NCBI GenBank assembly: GCA_030448105.1
Contig: JAUJNP010000001.1
Span: 359,403 to 423,402 of the forward strand
Reading direction: 5' to 3'
Length of the DNA stretch: 64,000 nucleotides
From: Acidimicrobiales bacterium
GTDB taxonomy: Bacteria > Actinomycetota > Acidimicrobiia > Acidimicrobiales > Iamiaceae
This document shows positions 43,661-64,000 of this stretch, piece after piece (the stretch's first letter is position 1; each line of letters begins with the position of its first letter). The notes below the pieces were generated by a model. It made no database searches and was not told the DNA's origin. It worked only from the letters and a program-made list of their open reading frames with translations. Made by a program: the position numbers and the translations under genes.

Positions 43661-43729
43661 TCACATCCTCCGCAGTCGCCGGTACCGGGCGAAGTCCGAA
43701 GCGAGCGCACCGCCAAGTATGACCGCCAT
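43661..43729 (-). CDS. 22-residue membrane microprotein in the hyp operon
   Basis: ATG at 43729-43727 overlaps the hypF stop by one base (TGATG), a classic re-initiation arrangement; the frame ends at TGA 43661-43663, three bases before the miniature hypC start. The product is MAVILGGALASDFARYRRLRRM: a short hydrophobic stretch then a basic tail. The same frame is hydrophobic for another 10 codons upstream (AAALLAIVVL), so the original start may lie further up at a non-standard codon. Its ending RYRRLRRM is reminiscent of small actinobacterial proteins I recall next to hyp genes (DUF6893-like); this match is from memory and unverified. Confidence 0.5.
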   Translation of the reverse strand: MAVILGGALASDFARYRRLRRM

Positions 43730-46029
43730 CAAGACGACGATGGCCAGCAGGGCTGCGGCATAGTCGGCGGCTGGACGCCCCGGGCCGCCGCCACCGCCGC
43801 CTGGCCGATGCTGATGCCGCCGTCGTTGGCCGGCACCAGGCGGTGGGTGAGCACCCGGAGCCCGGCGCCGGCCAGAGCCTCCTCCACCACCTCGCTGAGG
43901 CGGACGTTCTGGAACACCCCGCCGGTGAGGGCCACGGTGGCGAGGCCGTGCTCCTCGGCGGCGGCGGCACCGAGCACGGCGGCGGCCCGACCGACCGCTT
44001 CGTGGATGCCGGCGGCGATCACCGGGACGGGCGTGCCCTTCCCCCGGTCGGCCAGCACGGCGGTCACGAGGGGGACCGGGTCGAGCACGCCGTCGCCCAC
44101 CTCGACGGGATAGGCGGCCGCCTCGGAGCGGGGCACGGTGCGGGCGGCGGCCTCCAGCTCGATGGCCGCCTGGGCCTCGTAGGAGACGGTGGGGCGTAGG
44201 CCGAGGAGGGCGGCGAGCGCGTCGAAGAGACGGCCCATGCTCGTCGTGACCGGTCCGTGGCCCCGGTCGACGAGGTGGCGCACTGCCGCCAAGCGCTCGT
44301 CCTCGAACGGCGGATCGACGCCCGCGGCGCGCGCCCACGCCACGCCCATGCGCCAGGGCTCGCGGATGGCGGCCGCCCCGCCGGGCATCGTCACCGGTCG
44401 GAGGTGGCCCACCCGCTCGAACCCGTGGAGGTCGGCCACCAGGACCTCGCCGCCCCAGAGGGTGTCGTCCGGTCCGTAGCCCAGGCCGTCGAAGGTGAGG
44501 GCCACCACCGGTCCCCGGTGCCCGTGCTCGGCCAGGCACGACGCCGCATGGGCGTGGTGGTGCTGCACGGGGCAGGGCTCGAGGTCCAGCTCGGTGGCGA
44601 ACTTGGTCGACAGGTACTCCGGGTGCAGGTCGTGGGCGACGACCTCGGGCACGACGGCGTAGAGGTGGCACAGGTGGTCGACCGCCTGCAGGAACGACTG
44701 GTAGGTGGCGAGGTGCTCGAGGTCGCCGATGTGGTGGCTGACGATGACCGCCTCCCCGGTGGTGACCGCCACCGTGCTCTTGAGCTCCGCACCGACGGCC
44801 AGGATCGGGCGGTTGGCGGATACGGGGAGCGGTTGAGGTTCGGGCGCGTAGCCGCGGGATCGGCGCAGCAGGCGGAGGCCGCCGCCTTCCGGGAGGGCTC
44901 GGGCCACCGAGTCGTCACAGCGGATGTGGATCGGGCGGTCGTGGGTCAGGAGGCCGTCGACCATCGGCCCGAGGCGGGCGATGGCGTCGGCGTCGGTGTG
45001 GGCGATGGGCTCGTCGCTCAGGTTGGCGCTGGTCATCACGAGCGGACGGCGGAGGCCGGCCATGAGCAGGTGGTGCAGCGGCGAGTACGGCAGGAACACG
45101 CCGAGCTCGCCCAGCCCCGGGGCGACCCCCCCGGCGACGGTGGCGCCCGACCGCCGGGGCGCGACCACGATCGGCCGGCGGGGTGACACCAGCGCCGCCC
45201 GGGCGGCGGCGCCCAGCTCGCACAGCGCCTCGGCTGCCGCCACGTCGGGCACCATGACCGCGAAGGGCTTGGCGTCGCGGGCCTTTCGCCGGCGCAGCTC
45301 GGTCACCGCCGCGTCATCGACGGCATCCACCGCCAGGTGGTATCCCCCGATGCCCTTCACCGCGGCGATCCGGCCCGCCCGCAGCGCCTCCACGGCGGCG
45401 TCGAGGGCGGCGTCGCCCTCGGCCTGCGGCCGGCCGTCGGGTGCGCACCACCGCAGGCGCGGCCCGCACGCCGGGCAGGCGTTGGGTTGGGCGTGGAAGC
45501 GCCGGTCGGCGGGGTCGTGGTACTCCGCCTCGCAGGCGGCGCACATGGTGAACCCCGCCATCGTGGTCGCCGGGCGGTCGTAGGGCACGGCGGTCACGAT
45601 CGTGTAGCGGGGACCGCAGTCGGTGCAGTTGGTGAACGGGTATCGGTAGCGCCGGTCGGTGGGGTCGTCCACCTCGGCCAGGCATGCCGCGCAGGTGGCG
45701 GTGTCCACCGCCACCGGTGCCACCGGAGGCCCCTCGGCGGTGGTGGTCATGATCTCGAAGCCGGTTCCACCCGCCGGGGGCACCCGGGCGACGTCCACCG
45801 CCGTGACGATGGCCAGGGGCGGCGGCACCTCCACCAGCCGGCGGCACAGCTCGGCCACCGCCGCCTCGGCCCCCTCCACCTCCACGACCACGCCCGCGCC
45901 GTCGTTGTGGACGAAGCCAACCAGTCCGAGCTCCACCGCGCTGCGGTAGACGAAGGGCCGGAACCCGACACCCTGGACCGTTCCGTGCACGGCGATGCGG
46001 CGCCGCGCCACCGGGACCGGCGCGGTCAA
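43729..46029 (-). CDS. hypF: Carbamoyltransferase HypF
   Basis: 766 residues from a TTG that overlaps the hypE stop (TTGA). Domains in order: acylphosphatase (VHGTVQGVGFRPFVYR, residues 13-30), two zinc fingers (CAACLAEVDDP ... FTNCTDCGPRYTI and CAACEAEYHDP ... NACPACGP, about 110-200), a YrdC-like domain (GGYHLAVDAVDDAAVTELRRRKARDAKPFAVM), and the Kae1-like carbamoyl-transfer domain with HHHAHAASCLAEHG and ALTGGVFQNVRLSE. HypF uses carbamoyl phosphate and ATP to place a carbamoyl group on the C-terminal Cys of HypE, the source of the cyanide ligands. Full length with no defects seen. Confidence 0.95.
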   Translation of the reverse strand: MTAPVPVARRRIAVHGTVQGVGFRPFVYRSAVELGLVGFVHNDGAGVVVEVEGAEAAVAELCRRLVEVPPPLAIVTAVDVARVPPAGGTGFEIMTTTAEGPPVAPVAVDTATCAACLAEVDDPTDRRYRYPFTNCTDCGPRYTIVTAVPYDRPATTMAGFTMCAACEAEYHDPADRRFHAQPNACPACGPRLRWCAPDGRPQAEGDAALDAAVEALRAGRIAAVKGIGGYHLAVDAVDDAAVTELRRRKARDAKPFAVMVPDVAAAEALCELGAAARAALVSPRRPIVVAPRRSGATVAGGVAPGLGELGVFLPYSPLHHLLMAGLRRPLVMTSANLSDEPIAHTDADAIARLGPMVDGLLTHDRPIHIRCDDSVARALPEGGGLRLLRRSRGYAPEPQPLPVSANRPILAVGAELKSTVAVTTGEAVIVSHHIGDLEHLATYQSFLQAVDHLCHLYAVVPEVVAHDLHPEYLSTKFATELDLEPCPVQHHHAHAASCLAEHGHRGPVVALTFDGLGYGPDDTLWGGEVLVADLHGFERVGHLRPVTMPGGAAAIREPWRMGVAWARAAGVDPPFEDERLAAVRHLVDRGHGPVTTSMGRLFDALAALLGLRPTVSYEAQAAIELEAAARTVPRSEAAAYPVEVGDGVLDPVPLVTAVLADRGKGTPVPVIAAGIHEAVGRAAAVLGAAAAEEHGLATVALTGGVFQNVRLSEVVEEALAGAGLRVLTHRLVPANDGGISIGQAAVAAARGVQPPTMPQPCWPSSS

Positions 46030-47117
46030 CAGATCCGGGGAAGAGGGTCACCCACGAGCATGTCGACGATGCGGGTGCCGCCGAAGCTGGTGAGCAGGAC
46101 CACGATGCGCTCGGGCTCGGACCGGATCTCCCCGATCACGGCGGCGTCGCGGCCGAAGGGGTGGGCGCGCATGGCCGCCAGCGCAGCGTCGGCCTGGTCG
46201 GGAGGGACGACTGCCACGACCTTGCCCTCGTTGGCCACGTAGAGGGGGTCGATGCCGAGCAGGTCGCAGGCCCCGGTCACCGCCGGCGCCACCGGCAGGG
46301 CCCGCTCGTCGAGCACCACCGCCAGCTCGGTGGAGTGGGCCAGCTCGTTGCACACCGTGCCCACGCCGCCCCGGGTGGGGTCACGCAGCCACCGGGTGCC
46401 GGGCGCGGCGGCCAGGAGGTCGGCCACCAGCCCGCCGAGAGGTGCCGTGTCGGAGCGGATGTCGGCCTCCAGGGCGAGGTCGCCGCGGGCCAGCATGACC
46501 GCCATGCCGTGATCGGCGATGGTGCCCGACACCAGCACGACGTCGCCGGGGCGGACCAGCTCGGGGCCCAGCACCCGGCCATCGGGTATGACCCCGACAC
46601 CGGCGGTGGTGACGTACATGCCGTCGGCCGCGCCGCGGTTCACCACCTTGGTGTCGCCGGTGACGATGGCCACCTCGGCGGCGGCCGCCGCCGAGGCCAT
46701 GTCGGCCACGATGTCGCGCAGCTCGGCCATGGGGAAGCCCTCCTCCAGCACGAACGCAGAGGACAACCAGGCCGGCCGGGCGCCGAGCATGGCGAGGTCG
46801 TTGACGGTGCCGTGCACCGCCAGGTGGCCGATCGAGCCGCCCGGGAACGTGCGGGGCGCCACCACGAAGGAGTCGGTGCTGAACGCCAGCCGGCTCGTGC
46901 CCACCTGGATGGTGGCCCCGTCGGCCAGTTCCGAGAGGGGCTCGTTGGCGAAGGCGTCGAGGAAGAGCGCGTCCACCAGGGCGGCCGACGCCTTGCCGCC
47001 GGCGCCGTGGGCCAGGGTGACCACCTCGTCGGTGAGGCGTGGCCTCCGGCGGCGGAAGGCCTCGATGCGCTCGAGCACCGCCGACTCTCGCCCGTCGCGG
47101 GCGCTGGTGACGGTCAT
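46026..47117 (-). CDS. hypE: Hydrogenase maturation factor HypE
   Basis: 363 residues from ATG 47117, which overlaps the stop of the SIS gene (ATGA). PurM-like ATP-binding fold: VVTLAHGAGGKASAALVDALFL, STDSFVVAPRTFPGGSIGHLAVHGTVNDLAMLGARP, VTGDTKVVNRGAADGMYVTTAGVGV, and WLRDPTRGGVGTVCNEL. The protein ends exactly in PRIC, the obligatory terminal cysteine that accepts the carbamoyl group from HypF and is dehydrated to thiocyanate. So HypE looks fully functional. Confidence 0.95.
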   Translation of the reverse strand: MTVTSARDGRESAVLERIEAFRRRRPRLTDEVVTLAHGAGGKASAALVDALFLDAFANEPLSELADGATIQVGTSRLAFSTDSFVVAPRTFPGGSIGHLAVHGTVNDLAMLGARPAWLSSAFVLEEGFPMAELRDIVADMASAAAAAEVAIVTGDTKVVNRGAADGMYVTTAGVGVIPDGRVLGPELVRPGDVVLVSGTIADHGMAVMLARGDLALEADIRSDTAPLGGLVADLLAAAPGTRWLRDPTRGGVGTVCNELAHSTELAVVLDERALPVAPAVTGACDLLGIDPLYVANEGKVVAVVPPDQADAALAAMRAHPFGRDAAVIGEIRSEPERIVVLLTSFGGTRIVDMLVGDPLPRIC

Positions 47118-47767
47118 GTCACCCCGAGCTCGGGCCCGTCGAGAGCCTGTTGCACGCCTCGCCAGAGGTCGACCATTACCGCCGCCTGGGTCTCCTGGAT
47201 CCGGTGAACGCTGTCGGACCGGACCACGATGCAGTGGTCGAGGTCGCCCGACGCCGCCATGCGGCCCCCGTCGTAGCCGGCCGAGCCGACGGCGAGCACG
47301 CCGCGCCGCCGTGCCTCTGCCAACGCGATCAGCAGGTTCTCGGAGTTGCCGCTGGTCGACAAGGCGAGGGCCATGTCGCCGGGGCGGGCGGCGGCGATGA
47401 GCTGGCGGGCGAAGACGAGGTCGAAGCCCACGTCGTTGCCCAGCGCGGTCAGTACCGCCTCGTCGGCCGCCAGCGAACGGGCCGGCAGGACCCGGCCCGT
47501 CGGGGGCGAGACGAACAGCGCGGCCACGCCGGCGGCGTCGGTGGCGCTGCCGCCGTTGCCGAAGGTGAACAGCCGCCCGCCCCGGGCGAAGCGCTCGGCC
47601 ATGGCCTCGACGGCGGCGGCGAGGTCGGCCGAGGCGTCGGTGCGGGTGGCCGCCCGCAGCTGCATGCTCTCGCCCGCCTTCGCCTCCGCCGACCGGGAAA
47701 GGTCGGCGAGGAGGCTCGGTCCGTCCCGCTCGTCGCCCTCGATGAAGGGGTAGAGGAAGTCGGTCAT
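47114..47767 (-). CDS. SIS-domain protein (phosphoheptose-isomerase-like)
   Basis: 217 residues from ATG 47767. SIS fold: AMAERFARGGRLFTFGNGGSATDAAGVAALF (sugar-phosphate loop), ALGNDVGFDLVFARQL, MALALSTSGNSENLLIALAEARRRG and the C-terminal SVHRIQETQAAVMVDLW. It is like GmhA/DiaA isomerases, but the coupling to hyp genes on both sides (4-bp overlaps with the SIS-HypC gene and with hypE) indicates a place in hydrogenase maturation or its regulation. SIS genes inside actinobacterial hyp operons are known, but their job is not clear. Confidence 0.85.
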   Translation of the reverse strand: MTDFLYPFIEGDERDGPSLLADLSRSAEAKAGESMQLRAATRTDASADLAAAVEAMAERFARGGRLFTFGNGGSATDAAGVAALFVSPPTGRVLPARSLAADEAVLTALGNDVGFDLVFARQLIAAARPGDMALALSTSGNSENLLIALAEARRRGVLAVGSAGYDGGRMAASGDLDHCIVVRSDSVHRIQETQAAVMVDLWRGVQQALDGPELGVT

Positions 47768-48489
47768 GGCCCACCCTCGACGAGCGTGATGGCGGTGCCG
47801 GCGTGCACCAGGAGCAGGTCGCCCCGGTGCACGTCGCCCACCATGGTGGTGTCGATGTCCTCGATCCCGGCGGCGGTGCGGACCGTGGCACCGTCGCTCG
47901 CGGGGGCCAGCACCTCGGCCAGGCGGCCCTCGTCCGAGCAGGTGATGCAGGTCGTGGCCTCCTCGCACGCTCCGTCGGCGCCGAGCAGCCCGGGGTGCTC
48001 GAAGCACACGTGGGTCAGTTCCCACAGGAGGTGGTAGAGGAGGACGAGGCGGCCGTCGTGGACGGCCAGCTCGGTCTCGTCGGCCAGCCACAGGACATGG
48101 TCGGCGGCACCCGCCGGCGGCCGTCCCCCGGCGCCCATCCAGACGGTCGTGGCGCCCCAGGCCGGGGCCCGGCGCAGCACGTCGCTCACGCCCGCCGCGG
48201 CCGCGCCGCCGCCCCCCACGAGGACGACGTCGCCACTGGCCACGAGGGGACGGAGCTGGTCGGCGCCGCCGTCGCCGGGGGTGGCGATGGCCACTGCCGG
48301 TAGGGCCCGCTTGCCGACGATCACCGGATGGACGAACTCGACGGCCACGTGCTGCGCGTGCTCGGGGTGCTCGGGTGACCAGCACCAGAGGGTGGCACCG
48401 GCGGCGAACCGGCGGGCCATGGCCAGCGATGTGGACGCCAGGTCCGAGGCAAGGGAGCCGAGCGTCTGCGTCGCACCCGGTTCGGCCAT
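47764..48489 (-). CDS. Fusion of SIS domain and HypC/HupF-type hydrogenase chaperone
   Basis: 241 residues from ATG 48489, with GAGGAGG upstream. Residues 1-165 form a SIS-like domain (MARRFAAGATLWCW, VASGDVVLVGGGGAAAAGVSDVL, GATTVWMGAGG). After a linker with EEATTCIT, residues 178-241 (CITCSDEGRLAEVLAP ... IEDIDTTMVGDVHRGDLLLVHAGTAITLVEG) match the HypC/HupF fold, ending in the strand VGDxxLVHxGxAI; a CITC pair takes the place of the N-terminal MC. This would be the only complete HypC-like domain here, since the separate hypC is gutted. It is the first gene of the hyp operon, 87 bp downstream of the TetR gene. Confidence 0.75.
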   Translation of the reverse strand: MAEPGATQTLGSLASDLASTSLAMARRFAAGATLWCWSPEHPEHAQHVAVEFVHPVIVGKRALPAVAIATPGDGGADQLRPLVASGDVVLVGGGGAAAAGVSDVLRRAPAWGATTVWMGAGGRPPAGAADHVLWLADETELAVHDGRLVLLYHLLWELTHVCFEHPGLLGADGACEEATTCITCSDEGRLAEVLAPASDGATVRTAAGIEDIDTTMVGDVHRGDLLLVHAGTAITLVEGGP

Positions 48490-50899: not shown

Positions 50900-52086
50900 A
50901 TGACAGAGGCACCACGGCCCGAGGACAGGTTCAGCTTCGGGCTCTGGACCGTCGGATGGCTGGCCCGGGACCCGTTCGGCGACCCTACGAGGGCGGCGCT
51001 GGACCCGGTGGAGGTGGTCGGCACCCTGGCCGAGCTCGGGGCGTACGGCGTCACGTTCCACGACGACGACGTCGTCCCGTTCCAGGCCGGTCCCGCGGAG
51101 CGCGAGCGGGGGCTGAAGCGCTTCCGTGAGGCCCTCGACCGGGCCGGGATGGTCGTGCCGATGGTGACGACCAACCTGTTCACCCACCCGGTGTTCAAGG
51201 AGGGGGCGTTCACGGCCAACGACCGGGAGGTCCGCCGCTTCGCCCTCCGGAAGGTGATGCGCAACCTCGACCTGGCCGCCGAGCTCGGCGCCGCCACCTA
51301 CGTCTTCTGGGGGGGCCGGGAGGGTTCCGAGGTGGACGTGGCCAAGGACCTGCGCGCCGCGCTCGACCGTTACCGAGAGGCGATCGACACCCTCGCCCAG
51401 TACGTCGAGGACCGCGGCTACGGGATCCGCTTCGCCCTGGAGCCGAAGCCCAACGAGCCGCGGGGCGACATCTTCCTGCCGACCGTCGGCCACGCCCTCG
51501 CCTTCATCACGAGCCTCGAGCACGAGGCGATGGTGGGGGTGAACCCCGAGGTCGGCCACGAGCAGATGTCGAACCTCAACTTCGCCCACGCGGTGGCGCA
51601 GGCGCTCTGGCACGACAAGCTCTTCCACATCGACCTGAACGGCCAGCACGGCCCCAAGTTCGACCAGGACCTCGTCTTCGGCCACGGTGACCTCCTCAAC
51701 GCGTTCACGCTGGTCGACCTGCTCGAGCACGGCGGCCCCGACGGCGGACCCGCCTACGACGGGCCCCGGCACTTCGACTACAAGCCGCACCGGTCGGAGG
51801 CGATGGACGGCGTGTGGGCGTCCGCCGCGGCCAACATGCGCACCTACCTGCTCCTGAAGGAACGGGCCCAGGCGTTCCGGCAGGACCCCGAGGTGCAGGA
51901 GGCGTTGGCGGCGGCGGGCGTCCCCGATCTCGCCCAGCCGACCCTGGCGCCGGGCGAGAGCCACGATGCGTTGGTCGCCGACGTGACGTCGTTCGAGGAC
52001 TTCGACGCCGACGCCAAGGGGAAGCGGAGCCACGGCGCGGCACGGCTCGACCAGCTCTTGCGGTCGAGCACATGGGCGCTCGGTAG
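50900..52086 (+). CDS. xylA: Xylose isomerase (frameshift in last ~10 codons)
   Basis: ATG 50900 has GGAAGGGAG before it. About 394 codons with all hallmarks: [30 protein letters not shown] (catalytic His), [48 protein letters not shown] (metal Glu), [37 protein letters not shown] and [15 protein letters not shown]. After RLDQL the frame drifts into unrelated sequence, but adding one base near 52058 gives AVEHMGAR and the stop TAG at 52084-52086, the expected ending. It interconverts xylose and xylulose and is convergent with xylB. Confidence 0.92.
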
Positions 52087-52087
52087 A

Positions 52088-53476
52088 CGCGGCGACGCGG
52101 GTCGCCGCCTCGCGGTACCGGGCGCGCACCTCGGCGACCGGACGGCCCGGGATCCGCGCCGCGGTAGACCGGGCCCAGTCGGGGCGGTGCCCCCCGTGGG
52201 CCACGGCCGCCTGCCACGCCGCGCCGAGGGCCACGTGCTCCCCCGGCGCCGGCACCTCGACGTCGACGCCGAACACCCGCCCGGCGATCTCCTGCACCGC
52301 CGGCGACTGCGCTCCGCCGCCGGTGAGGAGGATCCGACCCACCTCCACTCCCTGGGCGGCGAGGGCGTCGACCCCGTCGGCCAGCCCGCAGAGCAGGCCC
52401 TCGATCACGGCACGGGCCAGGTTCTGGGGGGTGGTGTTGGCCAGCGACATCCCTACGAGCTCACCCCGCGCCTCCGGCAGGTTGGGCGTGCGCTCACCGC
52501 TGAAGTAGGGCACCACGACGAGCCCCTCGGCGCCCGGCGGAGCGGCCAGGGCGAGATCGGACAGGCGGGCGAGGTCGCACCCGAGCAGCGACGCGACGGA
52601 CGCCAGCACCGGGGCCCCGTTGAGCGTGCAGGCGAGGGGGAGGAAGGCGCCTGTGCCGTCGGCGAAGCCGGCGACCGTGCCCGAGGGATCGGCGGCCGGA
52701 GTCGCCGACACCGCGCTCACCACGCCGGAGGTCCCGATCGAGACGATCACGTCGCCCGGGCCGGCACCGAGGCCGAGCGCGGCCCCCATGTTGTCGCCGG
52801 TACCGGCGGACACGGCCACGCCCGGCCGGGCCTCGCCCGCGAGCGCGAAGGGCGCGAGCACCTCGGGCACCTCCAGCACGCGCCCGAACGCCTGCTCGAG
52901 CAGATCGAGCCGGTACGCGCCCCCGAGGGGCGACCAGTACCCGGTGCCGCTGGCGTCGCCGCGGTCGGTGACCAGCGAGGTGAGCGAGGATGCGCCCGTC
53001 AGCCGCCAGGTCAGCCAGTCGTGGGGCAGGCACACCGCCGCCACCCGGGCCGCGACCTCGGGCTCGGCCTCGGCCAGCCAGCGGAGCTTGGTGACGGTGA
53101 AGGAGGCGACGGGAACCGAGCCGGTCAAACGAGCCCACGTCTCCGCCCCGACCTCGGCGACCAGGTCGGCGGCCGCGCCCGCCGACCGGGTGTCGTTCCA
53201 CAGCAGGGCCGAGCGCACCACCGCCCCGTCCTCGTCGAGGGCCACCAAGCCGTGCTGCTGCGCGGCGACTCCGAGGGCCACGACGTCGTCGTCGAGGCCG
53301 CCGGCCTCCCCGAGGGCCTGGTCGAGCGCCGCCTCCCACGCGCGGGGATCGACCTCGGTGCCCTCCGGGTGGGGAGCCGAGGCCCGCCGGACGACGCGGC
53401 CCGACTCCGAATCGCACACCACGACCTTGCAGGACTGGGTGGAGGAATCGATCCCGGTGACCAGCGACGCGTTCAC
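52088..53476 (-). CDS. xylB: Xylulokinase (3' end undefined)
   Basis: GTG start at 53476 overlapping the GH3 stop (GTGA). About 463 recognisable codons: [22 protein letters not shown] (phosphate 1), [44 protein letters not shown] (phosphate 2 region), [29 protein letters not shown], and [22 protein letters not shown] (adenosine). It phosphorylates xylulose for the pentose phosphate pathway. Similarity ends with [12 protein letters not shown] near 52088, but no stop follows in frame until 50819, antisense to xylA. The true stop may have been lost, or an indel like the one in xylA hides it. The coordinate given is the end of similarity. Confidence 0.85.
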
Positions 53477-55709: not shown

Positions 55710-56738
55710 GTGATCACCGATGGACATGCAGGGAAACTCGTGCTCGACAACGCCGAAGTAGCCTGCCGCCCGGTGTCTGGCACGCCGGTGATCGAGGAGG
55801 AGCTCGAGCTCCACCGGCGCGAGCTGACGGCGTACTGCTACCGGATGCTCGGCTCGGGCTTCGAGGCCGAGGACGCCGTCCAGGAGACCCTCGTCCGGGC
55901 GTGGAAGAACTTCGATTCATTCGAGGGGCGCTCGGCCCTGCGGTCGTGGCTGTACCGCATCGCCACCAACGTCTGCCTCGACATGCACCGTGGGCCGCAG
56001 CGGCGGGCCCGCCCGATGGATCTCGGACCCTCCTCGTCGGCCGAGACGCCGCTCGGGCCGATGGTCGGTGAGCATGCGTGGGTCACGCCCATCGCCGACG
56101 CCCGGGTGCTGCCCGCCGATGGCGACCCCGCCGAGCTGGCCGCGGCGCGGGAGTCGATCCGCCTCGCCTTCGTGGCCGCCCTGCAGCACCTGCCGCCGAA
56201 GCAGCGGGCCGTGCTGATCCTGCGGGAGGTGCTGCGCTGGCAGGCGAGCGAGGTGGCCGAGCTGCTCGACACGTCGGTGGCTTCGGTGAACAGCGCGTTG
56301 CAGCGGGCCCGGGCCACGCTCGCCGAGCGGGACCTGGAGGCGTCGGCGCCGGACTCACCCGACGACCCCGAGCACCAGGCGCTGCTCGCCCGCTACGTCG
56401 AGGCCTTCGAGCGCTACGACATCTCGGCGCTGGTGTCGCTGCTCTCGGAGGACGCCAAGTTCACGATGCCTCCGTTCGAGCTGTGGCTCGAGGGCATCGA
56501 GGACATCGGGAAGTGGTACGTCGGCCAGGGCAGGGGTTGCCAGGGCGCCCGGCTGGTGGCGACCAGAGCGAACGGTGTCCCGGCCTTCGGCTTGTACAAG
56601 GTCGCCGAGCCCGGCGTGTGGCTGCCGTTCAACGTCCACCTCGTGGACACCGAGGACGGGCGGATCGTCGGCCTCCACCACTTCCTCTTCCCCGAGCTCT
56701 TCGCCGCCTTCGACCTGCCTCCCCGCCTCGAGGCGTAG
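55710..56738 (+). CDS. ECF sigma factor, SigG-like, with SnoaL-like C-terminal domain
   Basis: 342 residues with a GTG start; a GTG near 55773 just before the first helix is an alternative. Region 2: ELHRRELTAYCYRMLGSGFEAEDAVQETLVRAWKNFDSFEGRSALRSWLYRIATNVCLDM. Region 4: ALQHLPPKQRAVLILREVLRWQASEVAELLDTSVASVNSALQRARATL. The C-terminal ~110 residues (LARYVEAFERYDISALVSLLSEDAKFTMPPFELWLEG ... GLHHFLFPELFAAF) form a SnoaL/NTF2-like domain that in such factors regulates sigma activity instead of an anti-sigma factor. Transcription targets unknown. Divergent from the GH3 gene. Confidence 0.88.
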   Translation: MITDGHAGKLVLDNAEVACRPVSGTPVIEEELELHRRELTAYCYRMLGSGFEAEDAVQETLVRAWKNFDSFEGRSALRSWLYRIATNVCLDMHRGPQRRARPMDLGPSSSAETPLGPMVGEHAWVTPIADARVLPADGDPAELAAARESIRLAFVAALQHLPPKQRAVLILREVLRWQASEVAELLDTSVASVNSALQRARATLAERDLEASAPDSPDDPEHQALLARYVEAFERYDISALVSLLSEDAKFTMPPFELWLEGIEDIGKWYVGQGRGCQGARLVATRANGVPAFGLYKVAEPGVWLPFNVHLVDTEDGRIVGLHHFLFPELFAAFDLPPRLEA

Positions 56739-58421: not shown

Positions 58422-60116
58422 GTGCCTGAGAGATCCGCCGCGCCGCCGCTCACGGAGCGGGCCGCCCCCACCGACGAGCAGGTCGAGATCGAGCCGTGGC
58501 ACGCGGTGTGGTCGGAGACGGGCTCCTGGCCCGGCCAGCCCGAGCGCCACGACGAGCTTCGCCGGCGGATCGGCGCCTCCATCGGGGACCGGGTGTTCAT
58601 CGCCCCGTCCGCCAACGTGGTGTGCGAGTCGTTGTCGATCGGCGACCGCTCCTACGTGGCGGCCGGGTGCCAGCTGCGAGATCGCATCCGCATCGGCGAG
58701 GACTGTTCGCTCAACCCCCACGTCACCATGGCCGGCTCGGTCACCCTCGGGCACGGCGTTCGGGTGGCATCCCATGTCGCCTTCTACGGCTTCAACCACG
58801 TCTTCACCGACCTCGACGCACCGATCTGGATGCAGGGCCTTACCGAGGAGGGCATCGTCGTCGAAGACGACGTGTGGGTGGGCACCCACGTCGTCGTGTG
58901 CGACGGCGTCACCGTCGGAGCCCACAGCGTCCTCGCCGCCGGCGCGGTGGTCACGCGCGACGTGCCCCCGTACAGCATGGTCGGCGGAGTGCCGGCCCGG
59001 GTGATCCGTGACCGGCGTGACCCCGCACCTTCACCACGCGCCCCCCGCGACCCGCTGGCCCGCTTCGACGAGCGCGTGCGCCGCCAATGGGCCGACGTGG
59101 TGGAGAGGTGCCGGGTCGACTTGCCGCTCGGCACCTACGTGGACTCGCCGGGCGCGCCCCTCACCCAACGAGCGGTGTGCGATGCCGTCGAGCTGGCGGC
59201 GGCGTTCGGCGGGGTGACCGGCCTGCAGGCCGCGATCGGCGCCGACGCCCTGGTCGAGCGCCTGCAGGCGACACAGGATCCGGTCACCGGGCTGTTCCTC
59301 GACCCAGCGGAGGGGTGCCCGCCGGACCCGCTCCAGTGGCAGATCGGCAAGGAGTACCACCACTACGGCGTGCTTTCGGTGGGCTACGCCCTCGAGTGCC
59401 TCGGCGCCGGCCCCGCCCGGCCGGTCCACTGCGTCGAGGACCTGCCCGACGAGGACCTGCTGGCCCGGCTCGACGCCCTGCCGTGGCGCGAGCTGGCCTG
59501 GCCGGCCGGTTCGTGGGTCGACTTCTGGGGGACGGCCGTGTACCTGAACCGGCGCCATCACCACAGCAACAAGGGGCTCGAGACGCTGCTCGGGTGGCTG
59601 CTCACGCGCCTCGACCGGCGCACCGGCCTCTGGGGCGGTCCCCACCCGGACTGGGGGTGGCTGATGCCGGTGAACGGCTTCTACCGGCTCACCCGCGGCA
59701 CGTTCGCGCAGTTCGGCCTTCCACTGCCGGAGCCCGAGGCCACCATCGACTCGGTGGTGGCCCACTGCCGCGCCAACGGCTGGTTCGCGGAACGCAACCG
59801 CACGGCGTGCAACGTGCTCGACGTCGTGCACCCCCTCTGGCTGGCCGGGCGGCAGACCGACTACCGCCGACCCGAGCTGGTTGACCAGCTGGCCGCGCTA
59901 CTGGCCCGCACCACCGAGCACTGGGTCGACGGCGAGGGCTTCGCCTTTGAGGCCGGTCGCCCCACCGGCCTCCAGGGCAGCGAGATGTGGCTCTCGATCG
60001 TGTACCTCCTCGCCGACCACCTCGGTGAGGCCGACGGCCTGGCGTGGCGCCCACGGGGCGTGCACCGGTTGCCGCCGGCGGCCTCGCTCGCCATCCCCCT
60101 CTCGGGGTCGGCGTGA
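58422..60116 (+). CDS. Hexapeptide acyltransferase fused to an alpha/alpha-barrel-like domain
   Basis: 564 residues, GTG start. Residues 40-200 are a left-handed beta-helix acyltransferase of the maltose/galactoside acetyltransferase type: IGDRVFIAPSANV, IGDRSYVAAGCQL, IGEDCSLNPHVTMAGSV, the catalytic His in YGFNHVF, VVEDDVWVGTHVVVCDGVTVGAHSVLAAGAVVTRDVPPYSMVGGVPARVI. Residues 210-564 contain helical repeats with EYHHYGVLSVGYALECLG, SWVDFWGTAVYLNRRHHHSNKGLETLLGWLL, DWGWLMPVNGFYRLTRG and FEAGRPTGLQGSEMWLSIVYLLADHL, the look of a terpenoid-cyclase/GH-like alpha toroid. It may acetylate and recognise or trim a glycan. The next gene overlaps by 4 bp. The 249 bp before the start hold no recognised gene. 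Confidence 0.75.
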   Translation: MPERSAAPPLTERAAPTDEQVEIEPWHAVWSETGSWPGQPERHDELRRRIGASIGDRVFIAPSANVVCESLSIGDRSYVAAGCQLRDRIRIGEDCSLNPHVTMAGSVTLGHGVRVASHVAFYGFNHVFTDLDAPIWMQGLTEEGIVVEDDVWVGTHVVVCDGVTVGAHSVLAAGAVVTRDVPPYSMVGGVPARVIRDRRDPAPSPRAPRDPLARFDERVRRQWADVVERCRVDLPLGTYVDSPGAPLTQRAVCDAVELAAAFGGVTGLQAAIGADALVERLQATQDPVTGLFLDPAEGCPPDPLQWQIGKEYHHYGVLSVGYALECLGAGPARPVHCVEDLPDEDLLARLDALPWRELAWPAGSWVDFWGTAVYLNRRHHHSNKGLETLLGWLLTRLDRRTGLWGGPHPDWGWLMPVNGFYRLTRGTFAQFGLPLPEPEATIDSVVAHCRANGWFAERNRTACNVLDVVHPLWLAGRQTDYRRPELVDQLAALLARTTEHWVDGEGFAFEAGRPTGLQGSEMWLSIVYLLADHLGEADGLAWRPRGVHRLPPAASLAIPLSGSA

Positions 60117-61447
60117 TCGGTGGGCCGGCTCGCCGCCGGTCGCCAGGGTCGAAGCGGTCCCAGCCGCGGGTGGCCCCGCTCATCGCGGTCATCGCCGTGT
60201 TTGCGGCGCTCGTGCTGCCCGCCGAGGGCGCCGAGCGGCCGGGGGCCGCCGGCGACGCGGTGGGTGAGGCGAACCGGTGCGTCGAGCGAGCCGAGGTGAA
60301 GGGGGCGACCGTCGCGTGGGACAGGATCAAGAACCCGATCCTGAGCTACCCCGACGCGGCGGTGAAGGACATGTCGGTGCGGCTCGCCGACGGGCGGTGG
60401 CGCATCCTGTTCAGCTTCGCACGGGGCCCCGAGGGCCGTTTCGACATGGGCGTGGTCAGCAGCTCCGATCTCGACTCCTTCTCCAAGCCGGAGGTCGTGC
60501 CGGCGCTGGCCTCGCCGGAGATCACCCGCCGGTCCGACGGCACCTGGATCATCGCCGCCCAGCAGTACGACCAGCCCAAGCTGGCCCGGCTACGAGTGCT
60601 GACGTCGCCCGACCTGGAGACGTTCTCCGATCGGAAGCCGCTGGCGGTGGAGCTGGGACCGGATCTCCAAGAGCCGAAGCAGCGGATGATCGACGCCGCT
60701 CTCGCCCACACCGACGCCGGGCTGTTCCTCGCCTACAAAGAGGGCTACATCGTCGGGACGTCGCCCCGCATCGCCCATTCGCCGTCGGGCTCGCTGCAAG
60801 GGCCGTGGACCGTCATCGGCCGGCCCGACGTCGGGTTGTTCGAGAACTACCAGTTCTTCGTGCTCGACGGCACCTGGCACATGCTCGGGACCACGGTGCC
60901 GAGCATCGAGGAGCTGGTCAAGCACCTGGACCTGCTCGAAGAAGGGGTGACGGCGCCCGAGAACCCTCCCACCCACCGGCCGGTGCTCTACCGGCTGGCC
61001 GGCGATCCCGAGACGCCCGCCGACTGGCTGAAGTGGGAGAAGGTCCGCGAGATCGTCGTGCCCGAAGAGCGGTGGAACACCTTCGCCGAGGACGGCGACT
61101 ACGAACGGTCCAACTCCGCCCACCTCTGCGACGCACGCGCCCTGGACGGCTACTTCTACCTCTTCTACGCAGGTAGCAACGAGGTCGAGGCGTTTGGGGG
61201 GACCGGCCACGCCAAGCTGGGCATAGCCCGCAGCAAGGACCTGAAGACGTGGGAGCTGCCTCCCGGCAAGAAGGCCCCGAAGGTGCCGGCGGCCTCCGCG
61301 GAGTCCCGGGCCGGGCCCGCCCAGGATGACAGGAGCTCCACGTCATTGCCTCTAGCGGCGGCGGCCGTGGTCGTCCTCGGCCTGGCCGTCGCCGCCCTCG
61401 GCACCGTCGTGATGCGGCGCCGGGCCAACTCGTCCGCCGCCCGGTAG
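60113..61447 (+). CDS. Membrane-anchored five-bladed beta-propeller glycosidase-like protein
   Basis: 444 residues from GTG 60113 (GTGA overlap). A signal sequence/anchor (VAPLIAVIAVFAALVLPAEGA, about 20-40) leads to blades such as WDRIKNPILSYPDAAVKDMSVRLADGRWRILFSFA, VVSSSDLDSFSKPE, LRVLTSPDLETFSDRK, LFENYQFFVLDGTWHMLGTT and GYFYLFYAGSN, typical of GH43/GH62/GH68-like propellers. A C-terminal transmembrane segment (LAAAAVVVLGLAVAALGTVV) and RRR tail anchor it at the cell surface. Catalytic acids of GH43 are not obvious, so it may bind rather than cleave arabinan or other polysaccharide. Co-translated with the acyltransferase fusion. Confidence 0.7.
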   Translation: MIGGPARRRSPGSKRSQPRVAPLIAVIAVFAALVLPAEGAERPGAAGDAVGEANRCVERAEVKGATVAWDRIKNPILSYPDAAVKDMSVRLADGRWRILFSFARGPEGRFDMGVVSSSDLDSFSKPEVVPALASPEITRRSDGTWIIAAQQYDQPKLARLRVLTSPDLETFSDRKPLAVELGPDLQEPKQRMIDAALAHTDAGLFLAYKEGYIVGTSPRIAHSPSGSLQGPWTVIGRPDVGLFENYQFFVLDGTWHMLGTTVPSIEELVKHLDLLEEGVTAPENPPTHRPVLYRLAGDPETPADWLKWEKVREIVVPEERWNTFAEDGDYERSNSAHLCDARALDGYFYLFYAGSNEVEAFGGTGHAKLGIARSKDLKTWELPPGKKAPKVPAASAESRAGPAQDDRSSTSLPLAAAAVVVLGLAVAALGTVVMRRRANSSAAR

Positions 61448-61538
61448 GCCATTCCCGCTGGACAGGTGACGCGCAGCGTGGAGGTACGGTCGCACCACGT
61501 CAACGATCCAGCCACCGCGACGCCTGATCGCCTCGAAC

Positions 61539-62879
61539 GTGAGCCCCTACCTGCCCCTCGCCGGGGTGGTGGGTCTGGAGGCCGCGTGGTTGGCCAGTCG
61601 AGGCCGGATCACCGGGCCGCTGCTCTGGCTGCCGTTGCTCACCTGCGTGGCGGCCCACGCCGCCCTCGTCGTGCAGGAGCATCGCCGACCCCGACTCGGT
61701 GCGCGAGCCGTCGTGGTGGCAGCGGTCGTGGTGGGCCTGGTGGCGGTGGTGGCTCCACCGTTCGGGTCCCGCGACGTGTTCCTGTACGGGATCTACGGCC
61801 GGATGGTCGAGCACTACCACGCCAGCCCCTACGTCCACCTGCCGCGGAACTTCCCCGGCGACCCACTGCTCGAGGCCACGTCACCCAAGTGGCATTCGAC
61901 CCGCTCCAACTACGGGCCGCTGTTCACCGCGGTGTCAGCAGCAGGCGCGTCCGTCTACGGCGCGTCGCCGTGGGCAGCTCGCACCTGGTTCCAGGTGCTC
62001 AACCTCCTCGCCCTCCTCGCCATCGTCCTCGCACTGGCCCGGCGCCGGGTCTCGAGCTCCGTCCTCCTGGCGGTCGCCCTCGCCCCGCCTCTCCTCGCCG
62101 TCGTCAACAACGCGCACAACGACCTGCTCGTCGGACTGCTGGTGTTGGTCGGCGTGCTGCTCGCCCTGGAAGGGCGAGCTGGTCTGGCCGGGGTCGCGCT
62201 GGGCGCGGCGTGCCTGATCAAGGTCTTGGCCCTGCCCCTCGTAGCGGGGGTGGTCGTGGCGTACCTGCTCAAGAAGCGGTGGCGGGCCGCGGCCACGACT
62301 GCCGTGGTCACCCTCGGCCTCCTGGTCGTCGGCTATGGCGCCGCGGGCGGCGCCGAGGCGCTGGAACCCCTGGGCCAGCACACGGCCGTCACGACCCGCT
62401 TGTCGGTCTGGTACGCCGTCCAGCCCCTGGTTCGAGCGGTCATCGATTCGGACTTCGGGGTCGGGCACATCGGACGGGCGACGATGGTGCAAGTGGCGCT
62501 GGCCGCGGCGGTGGCGGTGACCATCGCATTCTGGGTCCGCAACCGCTCAGGCGGAGACCCGGCGGCGGTGATGGTGGCACCGATGGTCGTCACGTTGCTG
62601 CTCGCCGCTTACGCGCTCCCGGCCTACGCGGCGATCGCACTTCCGGCGGTGGCGCTCTCCTCCAGCCGCCGGTTCCAGGTGATCGCGTTCTCACATGCCT
62701 CGGTCTACCTGGTGGCTTACGTCGCCCCGTTGGGGCACCACCCGGTCCTCGCTCCCCCTTTCGCGTCGGAGGTGCGAAGGGCAGTGCCCTGGATCTGCCT
62801 GGCCCTCGCCGTCGCCTTCCTGGCGATCGGCCCTGCTCGTCCCCGCCCGGCCCCGAGCACCGAAGATTCCGCCGTCTGA
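61539..62879 (+). CDS. Polytopic membrane glycosyltransferase (GT87/MptAB-like)
   Basis: 446 residues with about ten hydrophobic helices. The first extracytoplasmic loop has FGSRDVFLYGIYGRMVEHYHASPYVHLP, where the Asp of RDVFLY matches the catalytic acid of GT-C enzymes that use polyprenyl-phosphate sugars (DUF2029/GT87 and the mannosyltransferases MptA/MptB). SNYGPLFTAVSA, VVNNAHNDLLVGLLVLVGV and LIKVLALPLV are further family features. It would add a sugar to a lipid-linked or cell-wall glycan on the outer face. It belongs with the acyltransferase and propeller genes upstream (gap 91 bp). Confidence 0.75.
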   Translation: MSPYLPLAGVVGLEAAWLASRGRITGPLLWLPLLTCVAAHAALVVQEHRRPRLGARAVVVAAVVVGLVAVVAPPFGSRDVFLYGIYGRMVEHYHASPYVHLPRNFPGDPLLEATSPKWHSTRSNYGPLFTAVSAAGASVYGASPWAARTWFQVLNLLALLAIVLALARRRVSSSVLLAVALAPPLLAVVNNAHNDLLVGLLVLVGVLLALEGRAGLAGVALGAACLIKVLALPLVAGVVVAYLLKKRWRAAATTAVVTLGLLVVGYGAAGGAEALEPLGQHTAVTTRLSVWYAVQPLVRAVIDSDFGVGHIGRATMVQVALAAAVAVTIAFWVRNRSGGDPAAVMVAPMVVTLLLAAYALPAYAAIALPAVALSSSRRFQVIAFSHASVYLVAYVAPLGHHPVLAPPFASEVRRAVPWICLALAVAFLAIGPARPRPAPSTEDSAV

Positions 62880-62956: not shown

Positions 62957-64000
62957 TCAGCCCAGCCGGGTCAACACGTTGCGGGTGATCTGCTCGACCT
63001 GCCGGTCTCGCCCGGCGAGTCCGTGGGCCCAGTCGGTCGACCCCGACGTGATCACCGTGGCGCCCGCCTCGTTCGTGTAGGCACCGAGCACCGCGTGGCC
63101 GTGGCGGATGCGTTCCATCGCTTCTGGCTCGCGCGTCCCGAACACGCGTGACGCGATGTACTCCAGCTCGCTCGGCTCTCCCGGCTTGGGCGGACGAGGC
63201 GCGGTCTCGCGCGTGAAGTGCTGGGTCGGGCACGTGCCGAGGATCTCGAAGGTCGGCGGCGTGCCGTCCTCGCCGGTCGGGTACGGCAGGCCGTCGCGGT
63301 AGGTGAACACGCACCCGTCGCACTCGTAGCCGACGACGGTGGCGCCGGCCCCGAGCACGTCGCCGTAGCCGAGCCCGGTGCCGTCGAAGATCCAGTGACC
63401 GGCGCGGTGCACCGTGTATCCGCCGAGCCCGGCGGTCACGTTGCGGCCGATGCGGTGGTAGCCACCGCGGGTGAACGAAACGCCGGTCATGCGGTTCTCG
63501 GGACGATCGACGACCACGTCGGACCAGAACGTCGTCGCCTCCCGCTTGCGGTCGGTGCCCGCCACAGGGTCGTCCTTGAAGAAGCCCTTGTAGCCGACCA
63601 TCACGTCGCGGTCGTCGCCCTCGATGCGCACCTGCCACAGCGAGGTGTTGCCCGAGAAGAACGCCGCGTTGCCGCCCCGGGCGATGAAGGCCTCGACCGT
63701 GTCCCGCATGCCGCGGGACCAGTACTCATCGTGGCCGACCGACAGGTACAGGCTGGCGCCGTCCAGCACCTCGGGGTGCGCCTCCAGATCGGCGTTGGTG
63801 CACACACCGAGCTCGAACCCCTCGCGCTCGGCCCACTCGATGAACGGCAGCTCCCAGTCGGGCCAACCCGCCGACCCGGCGTAGCCCGACAGGTGGTTGA
63901 GCTGGAGGTAGCCGACGTGGGCGGCGATCTGCGGATCGGGCTCGCCCGTCCCCGTGACCCGACGGCCCTTGCCCGGGGGCTTGTACAGGTAGCCCGCCGC
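62957..64000 (-). CDS. N,N-dimethylformamidase beta-subunit-like protein (5' cut by window edge)
   Basis: At least 347 residues; the frame stays open to the right edge, so the start is outside. Typical C-terminal DMFase-beta-like segments: VGYLQLNHLSGYAGSAGWPDWELPFIEWAEREGFELGVCTNADLE, then DGASLYLSVGHDEYWSRGMRDTVEAFIARGGNAAFFSGNTSLWQVR, GVSFTRGGYHRIGRNV and HWIFDGTGLGYGDVLG. In the known enzyme this part holds a glutamine-amidotransferase-like fold with a mononuclear iron. Most actinobacterial relatives have unknown substrates, and no small alpha subunit is seen on this side. Convergent with the glycosyltransferase. Confidence 0.8.
   Translation of the reverse strand, partial: AAGYLYKPPGKGRRVTGTGEPDPQIAAHVGYLQLNHLSGYAGSAGWPDWELPFIEWAEREGFELGVCTNADLEAHPEVLDGASLYLSVGHDEYWSRGMRDTVEAFIARGGNAAFFSGNTSLWQVRIEGDDRDVMVGYKGFFKDDPVAGTDRKREATTFWSDVVVDRPENRMTGVSFTRGGYHRIGRNVTAGLGGYTVHRAGHWIFDGTGLGYGDVLGAGATVVGYECDGCVFTYRDGLPYPTGEDGTPPTFEILGTCPTQHFTRETAPRPPKPGEPSELEYIASRVFGTREPEAMERIRHGHAVLGAYTNEAGATVITSGSTDWAHGLAGRDRQVEQITRNVLTRLG

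What the first reader, a model, noticed from the sequence alone, without database searches (positions are those of the whole stretch)
58422..62879. Possible new surface-glycan modification group
A hexapeptide acyltransferase fused to a helical-barrel (toroid-like) domain is co-translated with a double-anchored five-blade propeller protein and followed by a polyprenyl-sugar-type GT-C enzyme. The acyltransferase-toroid fusion is not an architecture I know. The set could acetylate, extend and recognise an outer polysaccharide.
Basis: partly seen in the sequence, partly recalled or inferred. Interest (0 to 1): 0.6.

Follow-up and report, generated by a model that had tools for sequence, protein, structure and literature searches.

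The report
Acetyltransferase-toroid fusion in sugar-breakdown loci
A protein that joins a sugar-acetyltransferase-like domain to an uncharacterised ring-shaped helical domain turns out to be an old fusion shared by many bacteria and one archaeon, filed only as 'acyltransferase', and its best-conserved neighbours are genes for breaking down plant-type sugars, not genes for building a surface coat.

Summary
In detail: three ORFs lie at 58422-60116, 60113-61447 and 61539-62879. The first joins a hexapeptide (left-handed beta-helix) acyltransferase to a C-terminal helical toroid; it shares a GTGA overlap with the second. AlphaFold gives a confident six-inner/six-outer-helix toroid. Foldseek's best hits are prenyltransferase-type toroids, but only at fold level. 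No Pfam or PDB sequence family matches the toroid.

The fusion is not local. It occurs in Acidimicrobiia, Streptomyces, Paenibacillus, Opitutaceae, Clostridia, rhizobia and a Haloarcula, and is split into two adjacent genes in two lineages. The two domain trees largely agree, so the fusion looks ancestral. It is annotated only as 'acyltransferase'; no description was found.

The surface-glycan reading is not supported. The fusion-propeller pair occurs only here and in one close relative, and the GT87 gene lies beside neither elsewhere. Informative neighbours are catabolic: ABC transporter-GH88-DUF2264-fusion in rhizobia, GH88 and DUF2264 in Haloarcula, GH28-GH28-fusion in Streptomyces, GH3, xylA and xylB near the window and in another family, and a divergent AraC regulator in eight of eight loci. 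The propeller resembles GH32/43/130 enzymes with three invariant carboxylates, so a hydrolase is likelier than a lectin. Enzymatic function remains inferred.

The parts
58422..60116 (+). Acyltransferase-toroid fusion, 564 aa, no signal peptide or TM segment
   Evidence: ORF; Hexapep; homologous full-length in about 27 loci from 7+ groups; no hydrophobic segment
58536..59021 (+). Hexapeptide / left-handed beta-helix acyltransferase domain (about residues 39-200); N125-H126 and G189-x-P-A motifs
   Evidence: Pfam, PDB hits to sugar/xenobiotic acetyltransferases, best 3ect E 1.8e-23; N125-H126 invariant in the 15 rows that hold this domain
59049..60113 (+). C-terminal (alpha/alpha)6 toroid domain (residues 210-564), no Pfam family
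   Evidence: AlphaFold model pLDDT ~90; Foldseek best RabGGTase beta E 8.9e-5; no Pfam/PDB sequence match; 51 invariant columns concentrated on alternate ('inner') helices
60113..61447 (+). GH32/43/130-like beta-propeller protein, exported (N-terminal hydrophobic segment) with a C-terminal TM segment; invariant D86, D194, E244
   Evidence: Profile of 14 homologues hits GH32 1uyp E 8.9e-11 and GH130; Glyco_hydro_43 / 32N in 9 of 14 members; conserved carboxylates; hydropathy
61539..62879 (+). GT87-type GT-C membrane glycosyltransferase; position after the propeller not conserved elsewhere
   Evidence: Pfam GT87; no homologue beside any other fetched fusion or propeller locus
50900..52086 (+). 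Xylose isomerase-like gene (xylA), context
   Evidence: Pfam AP_endonuc_2 100.9 bits; also near the fusion in L066
52082..53476 (-). Xylulokinase-like gene (xylB), context
   Evidence: reading frame and sequence; homologue near the fusion in L066
53473..55638 (-). GH3 family glycosidase, context
   Evidence: Pfam GH3; 62% identical homologue near the fusion in L066
62957..64000 (-). N,N-dimethylformamidase beta-subunit-like protein (runs out of the window), context
   Evidence: Pfam DMFA2_C; 54-58% identical homologue near the fusion in L066

Best explanation
The 564-aa protein is a soluble, probably trimeric, two-domain enzyme of carbohydrate catabolism. Its beta-helix domain transfers an acyl (most likely acetyl) group from CoA to a sugar hydroxyl, in the manner of galactoside/maltose acetyltransferases. 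Its toroid domain, whose cavity-facing helices carry most of the invariant polar and aromatic residues, binds and possibly cuts or rearranges the sugar or oligosaccharide that is acylated. The unit is used while cells take up oligosaccharides of plant-type polysaccharides (uronic-acid-, xylose- or rhamnose/galacturonate-containing), for example to cap or detoxify intermediates, and in several lineages it is probably controlled by a divergent AraC-type sugar sensor. In this window it is coupled to an exported, membrane-bound GH43/32-like propeller enzyme; the GT87 gene is a bystander. Shown: domains, fold, conservation, co-inheritance, neighbourhoods. Inferred: acetyl-CoA as donor, sugar substrate, a catalytic role of the toroid, regulation by AraC.
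For: Hexapeptide domain with the N-H and G-x-P-A motifs conserved. Confident toroid with 51 invariant columns; invariant polar/aromatic residues are 16 of 94 inner-helix positions against 2 of 80 outer (Fisher p 0.0012). Largely congruent trees of the two domains, with two splits nested inside fused clades. Operonic order sugar ABC-GH88-ABC ATPase-DUF624-SBP-DUF2264-fusion in five rhizobial genomes; GH88 and DUF2264 beside it in the archaeon Haloarcula; GH28-GH28-fusion in two Streptomyces; GH3, xylA, xylB and a DMFA2-like gene beside it in the window and, in another order and orientation, in another Acidimicrobiia family. Divergent AraC-type regulator at 8 of 8 Paenibacillus, Buttiauxella and Opitutaceae loci.
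Against: Many Acidimicrobiia copies have unrelated neighbours (prfC, an aminopeptidase and a sugar/adenosine-type kinase), and Rhizobium copies sit beside proline/betaine genes. Distant stand-alone toroid relatives lie in glycan-biosynthesis clusters. The toroid's best fold hits are prenyltransferases, not glycosidases, and overall TM-scores are low. GH88 and DUF2264 profiles are not related to the toroid. No substrate or activity evidence exists.
Confidence: 0.42

Rival explanations
1. Surface-glycan modification group: the acyltransferase-toroid acetylates, GT87 extends and the propeller recognises an envelope polysaccharide.
For: Hexapeptide acetyltransferases often serve capsule/LPS synthesis (WcaF model 67.9 bits); a GT-C gene follows in the window; distant stand-alone toroid relatives sit in GDP-fucose glycan clusters.
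Against: The three-gene order is unique to this window and the fusion-propeller pair is found only in one close relative. Across lineages the fusion sits with GH88, DUF2264, GH28, GH3 and xylose genes rather than GT clusters. The propeller has enzyme-like invariant carboxylates.
Confidence: 0.15
2. The toroid is a terpenoid/prenyl-type enzyme or lipid-binding domain and the fusion acylates or handles a lipid or isoprenoid, not a sugar.
For: Best Foldseek matches are Rab geranylgeranyltransferase beta subunits (E 8.9e-5), then C3d/A2M and squalene-hopene cyclases; weak Prenyltrans Pfam hits to distant relatives (E 0.03-0.06).
Against: TM-score to targets only about 0.4 and rmsd 8-9 A, so the resemblance is fold-level; GH76 mannanases and an epimerase score nearly as well; no Pfam prenyltransferase match to the family itself; neighbours are sugar genes.
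Confidence: 0.13
3. The toroid is non-catalytic: a substrate-docking or regulatory module that only positions acceptors for the acyltransferase trimer.
For: Always linked in cis or adjacent to the acyltransferase in the loci examined; invariant aromatic residues fit a binding cleft.
Against: Many invariant charged residues (D254, E257, D367, R422, R425, D467, E521) on cavity-facing helices are more than a docking cleft usually needs; diverged homologues stand alone.
Confidence: 0.3

Closest known systems
Galactoside/maltose acetyltransferase-type hexapeptide acetyltransferases (LacA, Maa; PDB 1kqa, 3srt, 3ect)
   Same: Same beta-helix domain, N-H catalytic-type motif and C-terminal G-x-P-A segment; acetyl-CoA-dependent sugar O-acetylation in the known members
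   Different: Scores far below every NCBIfam equivalog cut-off shown (e.g. 60.4 against 347 for galactoside acetyltransferase); carries an extra 355-aa toroid not found in those enzymes
Terpenoid cyclase / protein prenyltransferase alpha/alpha toroids (RabGGTase beta, squalene-hopene cyclase)
   Same: Six inner and six outer helices in a barrel; best Foldseek hits
   Different: No sequence-family match; TM about 0.4; invariant residues do not follow the prenyltransferase D-x-C...H zinc pattern (own knowledge, by inspection)
GH88 and DUF2264 families
   Same: Conserved gene neighbours; alpha/alpha-barrel catabolic enzymes (own knowledge)
   Different: No profile-profile relationship to the toroid (hhalign probability below 1%)
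GH43/GH32/GH130 five-bladed propeller enzymes (for the second gene)
   Same: Profile similarity (1uyp E 8.9e-11); invariant Asp-Asp-Glu with spacing like GH43
   Different: Below Pfam cut-offs in the window protein (13.1 against 32.2 bits); membrane-anchored; no characterised member found

Membership tests
Hexapeptide (left-handed beta-helix) acyltransferases | Hexapeptide repeats above the Pfam cut-off | tested here: met
   PF00132 59.1 bits, cut-off 27; 15 of 18 rows, the other three being toroid-only rows
Hexapeptide (left-handed beta-helix) acyltransferases | Catalytic-type histidine and C-terminal CoA-site motif | tested here: met
   N125-H126 and G189-x-P191-A192 conserved in the rows holding the domain; the role of the His is by analogy with known members
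Hexapeptide (left-handed beta-helix) acyltransferases | Trimer and acyl-CoA-dependent activity | not testable with these tools
   Only a monomer model could be made, with low confidence in this domain
Galactoside/maltose O-acetyltransferase equivalogs | Score above the NCBIfam equivalog cut-off | tested here: not met
   60.4 against 347 and 48.7 against 314 bits
Terpenoid cyclase / prenyltransferase toroid superfamily | Alpha/alpha-toroid fold | tested here: met
   Model pLDDT ~90 with 6+6 alternating helices; Foldseek E 8.9e-5, though TM only about 0.4
Terpenoid cyclase / prenyltransferase toroid superfamily | Pfam family match or PDB sequence match | tested here: not met
   No toroid-family hit for any of 16 members; no PDB hit for their profile
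GH88 or DUF2264 | Profile-profile homology with the toroid | tested here: not met
   hhalign probability 0.5 and 0.2%
GH43/32/130 propeller enzymes (second gene) | Profile similarity to solved five-bladed propellers | tested here: met
   1uyp E 8.9e-11, 9fj8 E 1.4e-5
GH43/32/130 propeller enzymes (second gene) | Pfam cut-off reached by the window protein | tested here: not met
   PF04616 13.1 bits, cut-off 32.2
GH43/32/130 propeller enzymes (second gene) | Three catalytic carboxylates in equivalent positions | tested here: inconclusive
   D86, D194, E244 invariant in 14 of 14 with GH43-like spacing, but the structural register is not fixed: the model failed and the GH32 alignments match more than one blade
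GT87 (GT-C) | Pfam GT87 cut-off | tested here: met
   56.6 bits, cut-off 25
Surface-glycan modification gene group | Conserved order fusion-propeller-GT87 in other genomes | tested here: not met
   Pair only in L008, GT87 nowhere else beside either gene

The most novel reading that the evidence does not exclude
The toroid is a new catalytic family (a new glycoside hydrolase, lyase or sugar isomerase) that works only in cis with an acetyltransferase: a two-step machine that cuts or rearranges an oligosaccharide and acetylates the product, spread across bacteria and into archaea under the bare label 'acyltransferase'.
Probability: 0.3. Interest if true: 0.65.

Novelty: new variant of a known kind. 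Interest (0 to 1): 0.42.

Why it matters
A conserved, ancient two-domain enzyme family is hidden under a generic annotation, half of it with no Pfam model. Its association with GH88-DUF2264 transport operons, pectin clusters and AraC regulators makes a concrete prediction about substrates. It would also bear on an old question: why sugar-catabolic operons carry acetyltransferases at all, the physiological role of LacA being still debated (own knowledge).

Tried and rejected
AlphaFold on the propeller with two sequences failed (pLDDT 33.7), and its model was not used. Kinship of the toroid with GH88 or DUF2264 was tested by profile comparison and rejected. A viral origin or viral fold match was not found (no phage record). 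E. coli genomes hold no relative of the Buttiauxella pair at DNA level. Literature searches for the architecture and for DUF2264 gave nothing useful. The three-gene group as a functional unit was rejected on distribution. A link to proline-betaine catabolism (Rhizobium neighbours) was considered and set aside because it is confined to one genus and rearranged in part of it.

Full report
WHAT IS THERE. The window lies in a 3.29-Mb assembly (49 contigs) whose closest named relative is an Acidimicrobiales MAG. Three ORFs are present as described. The first (58422-60116) encodes 564 aa. Its N-terminal part matches Pfam Hexapep (59.1 bits, cut-off 27) and the PDB's hexapeptide acetyltransferases (best 3ect, E 1.8e-23). 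It scores far below every NCBIfam equivalog cut-off shown, so no specific known enzyme is named. The C-terminal 355 residues match nothing convincing in Pfam, NCBIfam or the PDB by sequence, alone or as a 16-member profile. The second ORF begins at GTG 60113, inside the stop of the first (GTGA). The third follows after 91 bases and is a GT87 enzyme.

FOLD. With an 18-row alignment from the search for related loci, AlphaFold2 models residues 211-558 at pLDDT about 90, as alternating helices that count as six inner and six outer. The beta-helix half is modelled poorly, which would be expected for a trimeric fold given as a monomer. Foldseek's best PDB hits are RabGGTase beta subunits (E 8.9e-5), followed by C3d/A2M domains, GH76 mannanases and squalene-hopene cyclases at E 0.04-0.1, with TM about 0.4 or lower. 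This is a toroid at fold level only. Of 51 invariant columns, 31 lie on inner helices against 5 on outer ones; for polar and aromatic residues it is 16/94 against 2/80 (Fisher p 0.0012). Inner and outer were assigned by alternation, since no coordinates were available. The pattern is that of a ligand or active-site cavity.

DISTRIBUTION OF THE FUSION. The search for related loci returned 15 loci from Acidimicrobiia and other actinobacteria, Paenibacillus, Buttiauxella, Opitutaceae and Clostridia. Plasmid records added Rhizobium, Agrobacterium, Neorhizobium, Allorhizobium, Martelella, Streptomyces, Frondihabitans and the archaeon Haloarcula (136 records). Wherever the whole locus was read, the toroid is fused to the hexapeptide domain, except in Buttiauxella and a Propionibacteriaceae MAG, where the two are separate adjacent genes. 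Trees of the two domains broadly agree, and the split forms nest with fused Paenibacillus and with fused Opitutaceae respectively. The fusion is therefore most simply ancestral, with two later splits. Several supports are below 95, the Haloarcula and Clostridia rows are long, and the Streptomyces position differs between the trees. In the window's class, 7 of 395 sampled genomes hold it, and 5 of 24 in its family, so it is patchy. The public annotations seen call it acyltransferase, hexapeptide transferase, O-acetyltransferase trimeric LpxA-like protein or DapH/DapD/GlmU-related protein. No paper describing the architecture was found in the open library; subscription literature was not searched.

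DISTANT RELATIVES. Stand-alone toroid proteins occur in the window's own genome just upstream of groEL (L037) and in about 1-Mb genomes of one family. A profile comparison confirms kinship (98.7%, E 1.5e-16). The latter lie in glycan-biosynthesis clusters with GDP-sugar enzymes and glycosyltransferases (by sequence inspection). The wider superfamily is therefore not restricted to catabolism.

NEIGHBOURHOODS. In Agrobacterium vitis, Allorhizobium ampelinum, Allorhizobium pseudoryzae and Rhizobium sp. SSA_523 the fusion closes an operon of sugar ABC permeases, GH88, ABC ATPase, DUF624, solute-binding protein and DUF2264, directly after DUF2264. In Haloarcula it is followed within 5 kb by an IclR regulator, GH88 and DUF2264 (42-45% identical to the rhizobial ones). 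In two Streptomyces plasmids it overlaps or abuts the second of two GH28 genes, in one of them near GH78 and GH2. In one Paenibacillus a GH95 gene and an enolase-family (sugar-acid dehydratase-type) gene lie a few kilobases away. A divergent AraC-type regulator sits beside it in all eight Paenibacillus, Buttiauxella and Opitutaceae loci, of two AraC subfamilies. In the window, xylA, xylB and a GH3 gene lie 3-7 kb upstream and a DMFA2-like gene downstream. All four recur near the fusion in L066, from another family of the class, in different order and orientation. Against this, a clade of Acidimicrobiia has it next to prfC, another has an aminopeptidase and a kinase, and Rhizobium proper has it beside proline/betaine genes. 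The catabolic association is repeated in unrelated lineages but is not universal.

THE PROPELLER AND GT87. A profile of 14 homologues matches GH32, GH130 and related propellers (1uyp, E 8.9e-11), and 9 of 14 members hit GH43 and GH32 models weakly. D86, D194 and E244 are invariant in 14 of 14, with spacing like the GH43 triad (own knowledge). The structural register is unproven, because the model failed and the local GH32 alignments fit more than one blade. An enzyme is more likely than a lectin. Propeller homologues occur in 14 of 395 class genomes; apart from the window's own genome these are different genomes from those holding the fusion. Fusion and propeller adjoin only here and in L008. 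GT87 homologues were found beside neither gene elsewhere.

MECHANISM. The fusion has no signal or TM segment, so it is cytoplasmic, whereas the propeller is exported. The best-supported account is an acyl-CoA-dependent sugar acetyltransferase whose toroid binds, and perhaps processes, the sugar or oligosaccharide imported during breakdown of plant-type polysaccharides. Donor, acceptor and any toroid catalysis are inferred. Its two refutation conditions come out as follows: the fusion is widespread but without a described function, and the toroid fold is confirmed.

VERDICT. A real, conserved and under-annotated architecture; a new variant of hexapeptide acyltransferases with an unnamed toroid family. 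It is not a new surface-glycan system.

Noticed in passing
window 52040-52100: The xylA-like frame runs on past its expected end without a stop, while the neighbouring frame holds a plausible xylA C-terminus and stop (LAVEHMGAR*); this looks like a one-base frameshift, in the assembly or real.
   Followed up: partly
window 62957-64000 (-) and L066:12925-14373 (-): A dimethylformamidase-like protein lies near the fusion in two families of the class; the link is unexplained.
   Followed up: partly
L037, L030-L036 (G000:C1:19554-20090 and about 1-Mb genomes of family f34): Stand-alone distant toroid relatives, in glycan-biosynthesis clusters or next to groEL, with no Pfam family.
   Followed up: partly
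L040:6914-8632, L040:13008-15062: Two large proteins without any Pfam match lie beside the GH28-GH28-fusion cluster in two Streptomyces plasmids.
   Followed up: no
window 43729-47900 (-): By sequence inspection, a HypF/HypE-like hydrogenase maturation region.
   Followed up: no
window 55710-56738 (+): ECF-type sigma factor with a C-terminal SnoaL-like domain.
   Followed up: no
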